A stretch of DNA of 6,434 bases, from contig MGQK01000032.1 of NCBI GenBank assembly GCA_001797815.1, forward strand, positions 21,606 through 28,039, given 5' to 3'. Below the pieces are notes generated by a model, which was given only the letters and a program-made list of their open reading frames with translations, was not told the origin of the DNA and did no database searches. This stretch comes from Deltaproteobacteria bacterium RBG_13_61_14 (lineage in GTDB: Bacteria; RBG-13-61-14). Of the stretch, positions 2,070 to 6,175 are shown in pieces. Made by a program: the position numbers and the translations under genes. Each line of letters begins with the position of its first letter. The stretch's first letter is position 1.

Positions 2070-2070
2070 T

Positions 2071-2105
2071 CACTGATTACTGTTTACTGTGCACTGTCCA
2101 CTACT
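2071..2105. repeat. Degenerate heptamer tandem repeat (about 5 units)
   Basis: Five successive 7-mers share an ACTG or ACT core in the same phase: CACTGAT, TACTGTT, TACTGTG, CACTGTC, CACTACT. The array ends immediately before the fumarase stop codon. Neither this array nor the rest of the 2003-2106 gap contains a clear stem-loop with a T-tract, so no terminator is called for the convergent genes. Confidence 0.6.
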
Positions 2106-2106
2106 C

Positions 2107-3486
2107 TCAGGTCATCTTGCCCGGATCCAGGAGCCGGTCGAGTTCCGCGGGCGAGAGGTCGGTCATTTCGGCTGCCACTTCCTTGACCGGCCGGCCTTCT
2201 TTCACCGCCCGCTGGGCAATTTCGGCCGCCTTATCGTAGCCGATCTGGGGGGTCAGCGCGGTGGCCAGCATCGGGTTCTGCGCGGCCAGCCGGGCGCAGC
2301 GCTGGGCATTGGCCTTGATGCTTCGCACGCATTTTTCCGCAAAGAGCCGGGCGGCGTTGGTGAGGAGCGTGATGGACTCGAGCAGGCTTTGGGCGATGAG
2401 CGGCATCATGGTCGAGAGCTGGAAGCGGGCGTTGAGACCCGCGACCGCCACCGCGGCGTCGTTGCCGATCACCTTGGTGCAGGCCATGATCACCGCCTCC
2501 GGCACCACCGGGTTGACCTTGCCGGGCATGATGGTGGAACCCGCCATCAGCTCGGGCAGCATGAGTTCCCCCAGTCCCGCCGTCGGCCCGCTCCCCAGGC
2601 AGCGGATGTTCTCGGAGATCCCGGCCAGGGTGACCGCCAGGTCGCGGAGCGATCCGCTCACCCGCACCAGCCGGTCCGAGGCGGCCTGAGCTTCGAAATG
2701 ATTCTCCGCTTCCCGGAGCGGCAGGCGATAGTCCTGGCGCAGCCGGGCGATCACTTTCCCCGCGAACCGGGGGTGCGCGTTCAGCCCGGTGCCCACCGCG
2801 GTGCCGCCGAGCGGAAGTTCATATAGATTCTCCACCGTCCTTTCCAGGTCAGCCGAGGCGAGTCTCACCCGCGCCGCCCAGCCGGAAAATTCCCGGCCCA
2901 GCCGGATCGGCGCCGCGTCCATCAGGTGGGTGCGGCCGGTCTTGACGATGCGGTTGAATTCCTTGGCCTTGCGCTCGAGCTCGTGGGTGAGCCGAGTGAG
3001 CGCGGGAATCAGCTCGCGGACGATGGCCCGGGCCGCGGCCAGGTGGAGCGCGGTGGGCATGACGTCGTTGGAGGACTGGCCCCGATTGACGTGGTCGTTG
3101 GGGTGGACGAGCCGGCGGTCGCCGATCCGGCCGCCCAGAAGCTCGGCCGCGCGGTTGGCGATCACCTCGTTCAGGTTGCCGTGGCTGTTGGTGCCGGAGC
3201 CGCTCTGATAGAGGTCAAGCGGGAACTGGTCGGCGAGCCGGCCGGCCTCCACCTCCCGGGCCGCCCGGGCGATGGCCCGGGCCTTGCCCGCCGGGATCAT
3301 TTTCAGTTCGGCATTGACCGCGGCGGCGTGCCCCTTGATCCGGGCCGCACTCCGGAGAATCGCGGCCGGCAGGCGTTGCCCGCTGACCGGGAATACCTCC
3401 AGGGCTTTTTGCGTTTCCCGGTCCCAGTAGGCTTGCTTCGGGACCGCCGCGGTCCGGCCCCGCTCCTTGGCCATCCGCTTTTTCAT
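2107..3486 (-). CDS. fumC: Class II fumarate hydratase (fumarase)
   Basis: This 459-residue protein (the family is usually about 460) interconverts fumarate and malate in the cytoplasmic TCA cycle. Its motifs sit almost at E. coli FumC positions: QSGSGT 94-99, HPNDHVN at 128, QSSND ending at Asn140-Asp141, GRTH with catalytic His187, GGTAVGTGLN, and the mobile signature loop GSTIMPGKVN at 316-325, which keeps the catalytic Ser, Lys and Asn. The stretch HFEAQAASD...LGSGP and the IGYDKAAEIA C-terminus are also typical. GKVNPVVPEAV resembles the actinobacterial fumarase form; QSSND and GSGT favour fumarase over aspartase. The start at 3486 is chosen because GGAGG lies 8 nt upstream; the in-frame ATG at 3513 has no such site and falls inside the predicted -10. 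Unusual positions are SHGN for SNMN, DRET for GAQT, and ARFQLS for GNFELN. The gene is monocistronic in this window, convergent with PAP2 and divergent from the DUF481 operon. Confidence 0.92.
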   Translation of the reverse strand: MKKRMAKERGRTAAVPKQAYWDRETQKALEVFPVSGQRLPAAILRSAARIKGHAAAVNAELKMIPAGKARAIARAAREVEAGRLADQFPLDLYQSGSGTNSHGNLNEVIANRAAELLGGRIGDRRLVHPNDHVNRGQSSNDVMPTALHLAAARAIVRELIPALTRLTHELERKAKEFNRIVKTGRTHLMDAAPIRLGREFSGWAARVRLASADLERTVENLYELPLGGTAVGTGLNAHPRFAGKVIARLRQDYRLPLREAENHFEAQAASDRLVRVSGSLRDLAVTLAGISENIRCLGSGPTAGLGELMLPELMAGSTIMPGKVNPVVPEAVIMACTKVIGNDAAVAVAGLNARFQLSTMMPLIAQSLLESITLLTNAARLFAEKCVRSIKANAQRCARLAAQNPMLATALTPQIGYDKAAEIAQRAVKEGRPVKEVAAEMTDLSPAELDRLLDPGKMT

Positions 3487-3494
3487 CGGTCGTT

Positions 3495-3499
3495 CCTCC
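3495..3499 (-). promoter_or_regulatory. Ribosome binding site of the fumarase gene
   Basis: GGAGG on the minus strand, 8 nt before the ATG whose first base is 3486. This strong Shine-Dalgarno site decides the start in favour of MKKRMAKER, over the ATG nine codons upstream. Confidence 0.8.
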
Positions 3500-3508
3500 C
3501 CGCTCTCG

Positions 3509-3538
3509 AACATAGATGCTCAGCTCCGCCGTTGTCAA
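3509..3538 (-). promoter_or_regulatory. Sigma-70-type promoter of the fumarase gene
   Basis: On the minus strand, a perfect -35 TTGACA (3538-3533) is followed by an 18-nt spacer and TATGTT as -10 (3514-3509, 4 of 6 consensus). The start of transcription would be near 3502, giving a short leader that contains the GGAGG site. The call rests on consensus match and placement only. Confidence 0.55.
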
Positions 3539-3625
3539 GCGTCCCAACACGTTCCCCCTGATTCCCGGATAAAACAGGATCAGGTTGATTTTACCTGCCA
3601 GAGCCGTTCCCCCGAGGTGAGGCCG

Positions 3626-3645
3626 GGGCGCAATTGATTGCGCCC
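3626..3645. repeat. Internal palindrome 1 of the inverted-repeat element
   Basis: GGGCGCAAT and ATTGCGCCC form a perfect 9-bp palindrome around TG. A hairpin would probably have an 8-bp stem and a 4-nt loop. It has the same build as the palindrome at 3667-3686. An alternative pairing of CCCCG (3610-3614) with CGGGG (3624-3628) would compete with it. Confidence 0.75.
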
Positions 3646-3666
3646 GCAAATCAGCATGGGGCAAGA

Positions 3667-3686
3667 GGGCGCGATGAATCGCGCCC
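3667..3686. repeat. Internal palindrome 2 of the inverted-repeat element
   Basis: GGGCGCGAT and ATCGCGCCC form a perfect 9-bp palindrome around GA. It differs from palindrome 1 at one compensated pair in the stem (A-T changed to G-C) and in the loop. This palindrome resembles short intergenic repeats that I recall from many GC-rich bacterial genomes; that recollection is unverified. Confidence 0.75.
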
Positions 3687-3732
3687 CTGTCCCCTGATCC
3701 TTATCCGGGAATCAGGGCGCGTTCCTTCCGCC

Positions 3733-3761
3733 TTGACATCTTCCTGGCGGTTTTCTATCGT
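3733..3761 (+). promoter_or_regulatory. Sigma-70-type promoter of the DUF481-MFS operon
   Basis: A perfect -35 TTGACA at 3733-3738, a 17-nt spacer and TATCGT at 3756-3761 (4 of 6 to TATAAT). Transcription would start near 3768, only about 5 nt before the ATG at 3773, so the mRNA would be leaderless or nearly so. The call rests on consensus and spacing alone. Confidence 0.5.
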
Positions 3762-3772
3762 GGGGCAAATTG

Positions 3773-4663
3773 ATGGCGCATCCAAATCCGGAAAAAGTGA
3801 AAATTGACTGGAAAGCTCTGCTGATCTCGGTCCCTTTGCTGGCCTGGCCGGGATTCAGCCTTTCCCAAGAGCCGGAGCCCGCCGCCCCGGCGGCTGGCGC
3901 AGAGGAAAAGCCGGCGCCGCCGTGGAAAGGCTCCGCGGCCCTGGGCTATACCCAAAGCGGGGGCAATACCAACTCGACCGCGATCAATGCCAACGCCGCC
4001 CTGAGCCGGGACGGGGAACTGACCGACCTGGGCTGGCAGGCCGGGCTTCTTTACGGTTTTACCCGCTACACCGACAAGAACATCCTCTCGGCTAACAACT
4101 ACTTCGGCCTCTTCCGAGTGGATCAGTTTTTAACTACTTCGAAAAGGCCCTATGGCTTTTGCCAGTTTCAATTCCAGAGCGACCAGTTCGCGGGATTTTG
4201 GGGCAAATACATGGCCGAGGCCGGCGCCGGTTACAATTGGTGGAAGAGCAAAAAACGGAGCCTCAAGACCGAGGCCGGCTACGCCTTCATTGACTGGAAC
4301 TATACCGAGCCGAGCGAGGACGGCCGCCGTTGGGCACCGACCAATAACAGCGTGGCGCGCCTGCGTTACTGGCACCAGGTGCTTTCCTGGCTGGCGCTAT
4401 CCGAGGAAGCGGTCTATTACCTCAACTTGGAGGATACCCGGGAGTATCAGACGGAATCCATGAGCGCGGCCAAGATCAAATTGACGGACCGGATCGGCTT
4501 TCAATCTTCCCTGGCGGTCAAATATAACAACCGGCCGCCGCTGGTCGAAAAGAAAGACGCTTACGGTCAGACCGTCCACGACGCTGACGGAAATCCGGTT
4601 CTGGAAAGAGCCAAATATACCGACTATATCTGGACCAATACCTTGGTTCTCTCCTTCCCTTAA
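3773..4663 (+). CDS. DUF481 (YdiY-type) outer-membrane beta-barrel protein
   Basis: This is a 296-residue exported protein of the DUF481 family, whose biochemical role is not established. Residues 1-31 form a signal peptide with a long polar front (MAHPNPEKVKIDWK), hydrophobic core ALLISVPLLAWPGF and probable cleavage near SLS-Q. A Pro/Ala/Glu linker follows to about 50. From Trp51 the sequence alternates aromatic and polar residues in strand-like segments and begins with the family hallmark GYTQSGGNTNS (58-68). Later landmarks are AGAGYNWW, EAGYAFIDWNY, NNSVARLRYWHQ, and a final strand TNTLVLSFP. The terminal aromatic of the barrel signal is followed by one extra Pro, which is unusual. ATG 3773 is preferred to TTG 3770; its ribosome binding site is weak (GGGG at 3762-3765). 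The gene is less GC-rich in its third positions than the transporter after it, and shares an operon with it. Confidence 0.82.
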   Translation: MAHPNPEKVKIDWKALLISVPLLAWPGFSLSQEPEPAAPAAGAEEKPAPPWKGSAALGYTQSGGNTNSTAINANAALSRDGELTDLGWQAGLLYGFTRYTDKNILSANNYFGLFRVDQFLTTSKRPYGFCQFQFQSDQFAGFWGKYMAEAGAGYNWWKSKKRSLKTEAGYAFIDWNYTEPSEDGRRWAPTNNSVARLRYWHQVLSWLALSEEAVYYLNLEDTREYQTESMSAAKIKLTDRIGFQSSLAVKYNNRPPLVEKKDAYGQTVHDADGNPVLERAKYTDYIWTNTLVLSFP

Positions 4664-6123: not shown

Positions 6124-6152
6124 TTCGCAGTTGGCGGAAAGCAAGAAAGTAG

Positions 6153-6175
6153 CCGCGACCGCTCTTCAGTCGCGG
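6153..6175. terminator. GC-rich hairpin between convergent genes, possible terminator
   Basis: CCGCGAC (6153-6159) and GTCGCGG (6169-6175) form a perfect 7-bp stem around a 9-nt loop. It lies between the stop codons of the MFS gene (+) and the HemW-like gene (-). No T-tract follows on either strand, so a classic intrinsic terminator is not supported; it may instead be an intergenic repeat or a 3' stabilising hairpin. Confidence 0.4.

What the first reader, a model, noticed from the sequence alone, without database searches (positions are those of the whole stretch)
3556..3717. 162-bp compound inverted repeat between two outward promoters
The sequence shows 25 complementary positions (17 perfect, a 4-nt interruption, then 8) flanking 108 bp that hold two further palindromes. 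It has no coding capacity. It is nearly centred between the fumarase and DUF481 -35 boxes (17 and 15 nt away). This could be a non-autonomous mobile or REP-doublet element that has landed in, or become, a divergent control region, or a shared operator or structured RNA leader.
Basis: partly seen in the sequence, partly recalled or inferred. Interest (0 to 1): 0.6.

Follow-up and report, generated by a model that had tools for sequence, protein, structure and literature searches.

The report
Promoter-adjacent mobile element carrying palindromes
The 162-base hairpin between two genes is a small non-autonomous transposon with matching ends and a duplicated landing site; it belongs to element families that, in this poorly known bacterial phylum, repeatedly landed right beside the -35 box of promoters.

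Summary
Bases 3556-3717 are a MITE-like element. The same TIRs end other elements in this genome and in two congeners from another family of the order, some 162 bp long, some with perfect 8-bp TSDs. The interior holds a decayed head-to-head pair of GTAG-tagged (REP-type) palindromes, 153 matches genome-wide; most doublets examined sit inside a second MITE family ("MITE2", 10-bp TSDs).

Unexpected: both families lie beside sigma70 promoters. MITE2 ends have a -35 box at exactly 13 nt (28 of 93 ends; at most 3 at any other offset). The window family has one within 0-17 nt at 17 of 42 ends (shuffles 4.1±1.8). A G001 orthologue keeps the promoter but lacks the element. Here the element lies 17 and 15 nt from the -35 boxes of two divergent promoters, upstream of both predicted transcripts, so it is not their RNA leader.

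Unresolved: the transposase, whether promoter proximity reflects targeting or retention, and why solo ends persist upstream of promoters.

The parts
3548..3555 (.). left copy of the 8-bp target-site duplication, CACGTTCC
   Evidence: 7/8 identical to 3718-3725 in the exact register abutting the TIRs
3556..3572 (+). left terminal inverted repeat CCCTGATTCCCGGATAA
   Evidence: perfect complement of 3701-3717; same end sequence in all three genomes held for the phylum
3577..3584 (+). inner extension of the left arm, GGATCAGG, after a 4-nt bulge
   Evidence: pairs with 3693-3700
3626..3645 (+). palindrome A, GGGCGCAATTGATTGCGCCC (GTAG tag decayed here)
   Evidence: 153 genome hits at up to 2 mismatches, reversed-pattern control 0
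3667..3686 (-). palindrome B, GGGCGCGATGAATCGCGCCC (CTAC tag decayed here)
   Evidence: same family
3693..3700 (-). inner extension of the right arm
3701..3717 (-). right terminal inverted repeat TTATCCGGGAATCAGGG
3718..3725 (.). right copy of the target-site duplication, CGCGTTCC
3509..3538 (-). predicted fumarase promoter, TTGACA-18-TATGTT, 17 nt outside the left TIR
3733..3761 (+). predicted DUF481-gene promoter, TTGACA-17-TATCGT, 15 nt outside the right TIR
2107..3513 (-). class II fumarase gene
   Evidence: Pfam Lyase_1 and FumaraseC_C
3770..4663 (+). DUF481 protein gene
   Evidence: Pfam DUF481

Best explanation
The 162-bp feature is a non-autonomous transposable element (MITE). It is bounded by 17-bp TIRs and an 8-bp TSD and was inserted between two back-to-back sigma70 promoters (24 nt between their -35 boxes in the inferred empty site). 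Its interior is a decayed head-to-head pair of GTAG-tagged REP palindromes of a family found about 150 times in the genome. Shown from sequence: TIRs, TSD, multicopy family, REP doublet, position beside promoters. Inferred: a transposase acting in trans cut a site close to the -35 boxes, and the element now separates the two promoters. Most likely (about 0.6) the transposases of this family and of MITE2 choose sites by the -35 region or by promoter-bound RNA polymerase: the MITE2 10-bp TSD ends exactly 3 nt before a TTGACA-like box in most copies.
For: TSD in the exact register: window 7/8, L274 8/8, L277 8/8, L280 7/8; 90 mismatched left/right pairings reach at most 6, once; permutation p about 1.5e-4 over 10 elements with +/-1 register slack. 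Paired TIRs also at C111 (164 bp) and in G002, including 162-bp copies L271, L277, L288. TIR hits at up to 1 mismatch: 10 in G000, 12 in G002, 1 in G001, control 0. Palindromes: 153 hits, control 0; 98 of 104 carry GTAG or CTAC on one side and 41 of 46 doublets are GTAG-A-B-CTAC, with a compensatory A-T/G-C swap. MITE2: 18 of 38 pairs with a perfect 10-bp TSD and 8 more at 9/10, wrong-pairing maximum 8. MITE2 -35 at exactly 13 nt: 28 of 93 ends, at most 3 at any other of 50 offsets, shuffle maximum 5. Window family: 17 of 42 ends with a -35 at 0-17 nt, shuffles 4.1 +/- 1.8, maximum 10. The G001 orthologue of one G002 site keeps TTGACT-18-TAGAAT and has no element.
Against: The window TSD has one mismatch. 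Several paired family members (C111, L246, L271, L276, L288, L278) show no 8-bp TSD in the exact register; some have a shorter or shifted repeat. No autonomous element with these TIRs was found among DDE_Tnp_1 genes of the three genomes, though only that transposase family was searched. About a dozen ends are solo, with no recognisable partner within 260 bp, which a plain MITE does not predict. No empty site is known for the window locus itself. The window's 15/17-nt spacing is off the family's 6-9-nt mode.
Confidence: 0.83

Rival explanations
1. The 17-nt arm is primarily a regulator-binding site upstream of the -35 box, and the window simply has one facing each divergent promoter: a shared operator, not an insertion.
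For: Arms lie 6-17 nt upstream of a -35 box at about 8 G000 promoters and at many in G001/G002, including solo arms without a partner. Spacings cluster at 6-9 and 14-17 nt, about one helical turn apart. The arm always points the same way relative to the promoter.
Against: It does not predict the TSDs, fixed 162-bp paired units with shared interiors in G002, or the absence of the element at the G001 orthologue. Downstream genes show no common pathway.
Confidence: 0.1
2. The element was an insertion, but its end sequences have since been co-opted as upstream promoter elements, so that promoter-proximal ends are kept while distal ends decay; proximity to promoters is then retention rather than targeting.
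For: Explains both the TSD-bearing pairs and the solo, promoter-proximal ends in all three genomes.
Against: Does not explain the single sharp 13-nt register of MITE2 copies that still have perfect TSDs. No expression data.
Confidence: 0.3
3. The arms and palindromes are one large REP/BIME structure spread by a RAYT (Y1 transposase) only, and the TIR reading is wrong.
For: 19 Y1_Tnp genes in the genome; GTAG-tagged palindromes; GTAG dimers inside longer palindromes are known (PMC3733652).
Against: From general knowledge, IS200/IS605-type Y1 transposition makes no TSD, whereas 8-bp and 10-bp TSDs are present. None of the 19 Y1 genes has these palindromes beside it, apart from one 3-mismatch chance-like match in L323.
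Confidence: 0.04
4. The inverted repeat acts as a structured RNA (leader, terminator or small RNA).
For: Very stable fold on both strands.
Against: It lies upstream of both predicted transcripts, Rfam has no match, and the flanking genes diverge so neither reads into it. Arm pairing is expected from TIRs.
Confidence: 0.03

Closest known systems
Bacterial MITEs (e.g. Correia elements, ERIC, RUP, BOX; review PMC10969869)
   Same: Under 500 bp, TIRs, TSD, no transposase gene, multicopy, intergenic, strong fold, often near genes.
   Different: Correia-type MITEs bring promoters inside the element. Here the promoter lies outside it, and in MITE2 at one fixed distance. In the passages of the review that I read, insertion preference is described as intergenic; nothing about a fixed register to the -35 box was found there or in the open-library searches.
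GTAG-tagged REP head-to-head dimers (PMC3733652, PMC2817692)
   Same: GTAG-hairpin-spacer-hairpin-CTAC layout, high copy number; dimers nested inside longer palindromes are described for Anabaena variabilis.
   Different: The surrounding palindrome here is a TIR element with a TSD. The tags in the window copy are decayed, and no cognate RAYT was identified.
Insertion sequences with a preferred host sequence context (e.g. ISPpu9 in REP sequences, abstract of PMC8450116)
   Same: A mobile element with a preferred host sequence context.
   Different: The context here is the upstream edge of the sigma70 -35 box. No such family was found in the papers searched (not an exhaustive search).

Membership tests
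MITE (non-autonomous TIR element) | short element with terminal inverted repeats | tested here: met
   17 of 17 pairs at the ends of 162 bp
MITE (non-autonomous TIR element) | target-site duplication | tested here: met
   7/8 in the window, 8/8 in two relatives; wrong-pairing control reaches 6 at most
MITE (non-autonomous TIR element) | several dispersed copies with the same ends | tested here: met
MITE (non-autonomous TIR element) | no transposase gene inside | tested here: met
   162 bp; the frames of 50 aa or more that touch it all run out into the flanks
MITE (non-autonomous TIR element) | autonomous parent with the same TIRs | tested here: inconclusive
   none beside 8 DDE_Tnp_1 genes of the phylum; other transposase families not searched
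MITE (non-autonomous TIR element) | empty site in a relative | tested here: inconclusive
   orthologous promoter without the element seen for G002 site L280 in G001; no orthologous locus available for the window
GTAG REP head-to-head dimer | high-copy short palindrome | tested here: met
   153 hits, control 0
GTAG REP head-to-head dimer | GTAG tag at the outer foot of each hairpin | tested here: met
   met by the family, 98 of 104 copies; the window copy itself is decayed on both sides
GTAG REP head-to-head dimer | RAYT gene flanked by the same REP | tested here: not met
   no clear copy near any of 19 Y1_Tnp genes; so a RAYT origin is not claimed, only the GTAG-dimer layout

The most novel reading that the evidence does not exclude
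At least two TIR transposon families in this phylum select targets by the sigma70 promoter itself: the integration complex recognises the -35 region or promoter-bound RNA polymerase and cuts at a fixed distance upstream (MITE2: 10-bp TSD ending exactly 3 nt before TTGACA). This would spare the promoter while placing the element beside active genes.
Probability: 0.5. Interest if true: 0.75.

Novelty: new variant of a known kind. Interest (0 to 1): 0.56.

Why it matters
Bacterial MITEs are usually said only to prefer intergenic DNA. A family whose cut site keeps one register to the -35 box would be a natural promoter-seeking transposon: a bacterial counterpart of eukaryotic elements that integrate next to promoters, a possible marker of promoters in uncultured bacteria, and a source of regulatory change beside intact promoters. 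It also explains a class of large compound hairpins between divergent genes as nested mobile DNA rather than regulatory RNA.

Tried and rejected
RNA leader or riboswitch: no Rfam match and the element is upstream of both promoters. RAYT-driven spread of the outer arms: no arms or clear palindromes beside the 19 Y1_Tnp genes, and TSDs argue against it. Autonomous parent: candidates L319 and L320 looked at in full; L320 is an IS with unrelated TIRs and L319 has one stray MITE2-like end. Orthologues of the window locus: fumarase searches in 40 relatives and in the genome-contig collection gave only distant homologues. A common regulon for the arm: downstream genes are mixed, e.g. gamma-glutamyltransferase-like, SPOR-domain-like, galT-like, SlyD-like, by reading of the translations only. 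Searches of the paper library for promoter-targeted insertion found nothing matching.

Full report
WHAT IS THERE. The window lies on a 35-kb contig of a 4.74-Mb genome (G000) of a phylum for which only three genomes are held: G000 plus two congeners, G001 and G002, from another family of the same order. The compound inverted repeat exists as described, folds far better than shuffles, and lies between a class II fumarase and a DUF481 gene, whose promoters are both called by the consensus scan.

OUTER ELEMENT. In ten paired elements of the family, 8-bp matches in that exact register are 7, 8, 8 and 7 for the window, L274, L277 and L280; mismatched left/right pairings never exceed 6 (90 pairings, 6 reached once), and the permutation test, which allows one base of register slack, gives p about 1.5e-4. 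Other pairs show no such repeat in that register, which I take as decay or misplaced ends; C111 shows none at all. The arm TTA[A/T]CCGGGAATCAGGG has 10 hits at up to 1 mismatch in G000, 12 in G002 and 1 in G001, with none in the reversed-pattern control. G002 holds complete units, 114-195 bp, three of them 162 bp, mostly with a different interior doublet TGTAGCGTCA...TGACGCTACA. These are the marks of a MITE family shared at order level.

INNER DOUBLET. The two inner palindromes belong to a family with 153 matches in the genome (control 0). In the 104 distinct copies read, 98 carry GTAG or CTAC on one side, and 41 of 46 neighbouring pairs have the layout GTAG-A-spacer-B-CTAC; one stem position alternates A-T/G-C in step. 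This is the head-to-head GTAG REP dimer layout of PMC3733652, which also reports dimers nested in longer palindromes. In the window the tags are decayed and the spacer is 21 nt instead of the usual 11-12.

SECOND FAMILY. 39 of 46 doublets sit inside another TIR element (MITE2, TIR CTTGCCC[A/T]CCCTCATTTTTT, mostly 137-148 bp). Its 10-bp TSDs are unmistakable: 18 of 38 pairs perfect and 8 more at 9 of 10, against a maximum of 8 in mismatched pairings.

PROMOTER REGISTER. Reading outward from 93 MITE2 ends, 28 have at least 5 of 6 matches to TTGACA at offset 13, against at most 3 at any other of 50 offsets; shuffles average 0.5 with a maximum of 5. 24 of 38 complete elements have such a box at 12-14 nt on exactly one side. 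With the 10-bp TSD this puts the cut 3 nt upstream of the -35 box. Base composition also rises for T, A, A at positions 36-38, where a -10 box is expected. For the window family, 17 of 42 ends have a -35 at 0-17 nt (shuffles 4.1 +/- 1.8, maximum 10) and 4 at 20-54 nt; the mode is 6-9 nt, with a smaller group at 14-17 nt that includes both window ends. Seven doublets outside MITE2 (one of them the window's) show no fixed register, though 14 flanks is a small control. At G002 site L280, the G001 orthologue keeps the promoter TTGACT-18-TAGAAT and lacks the element, so that promoter does not depend on the element. I found no description of such a fixed register in the open-access library; subscription papers were not searchable.

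HOW IT LIKELY WORKS. Shown: insertion by a TIR/TSD mechanism, and adjacency to promoters. Inferred: an unidentified transposase acting in trans prefers the upstream edge of the -35 region; the element spares the promoter and moves upstream DNA away. Joined at the TSD, the window's empty site would have 24 nt between the two -35 boxes. Effects on expression are untested.

CAVEATS. Statistics rest on loci fetched because they match the TIRs or palindromes, not on a full census; the hexamer criterion is a consensus match, not a mapped promoter. The offset range for the window family (0-17) was chosen after seeing the data; the MITE2 offset is a single sharp peak and does not depend on such a choice. 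Solo arms near promoters leave room for a regulatory role of the arm.

Noticed in passing
L002-L030, L205-L234, L290-L309 (G000): MITE2: about 46 elements with TIR CTTGCCC[A/T]CCCTCATTTTTT, 10-bp TSDs and a -35 box at exactly 13 nt from one end in most; this is the sharper case of promoter register.
   Followed up: yes
L049, L051, L052, L053, L055 (G000); L235, L237, L242, L244 (G002); L236 (G001): Solo copies of the 17-nt arm, without a recognisable partner, 4-14 nt upstream of a -35 box.
   Followed up: partly
window 6149-6175: GTAG followed by CCGCGACCGCTCTTCAGTCGCGG, apparently a member of a different GTAG-tagged palindrome family; similar strings are visible in L016, L074 and L320.
   Followed up: no
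window 2070-2105: TACTGTTTACTGTGCACTGTCCACTAC: a string resembling the ACAGTGCACAGTG-type repeats seen next to other elements (L016, L074, L307, L320).
   Followed up: no
L243, L245, L246, L271, L288 (G002): In the congener the same TIRs enclose a different palindrome doublet (TGTAGCGTCA...TGACGCTACA), so interiors differ while ends are kept.
   Followed up: partly
L076-L090, L322-L325 (G000): 19 Y1_Tnp (RAYT/IS200-like) genes, none clearly flanked by the GGGCGC palindromes; their own cognate repeats were not identified.
   Followed up: partly
window 3556-3584 and 3693-3717: Each arm also holds a local dyad (CCTGAT...ATCAGG), which accounts for the extra 8 complementary positions.
   Followed up: no
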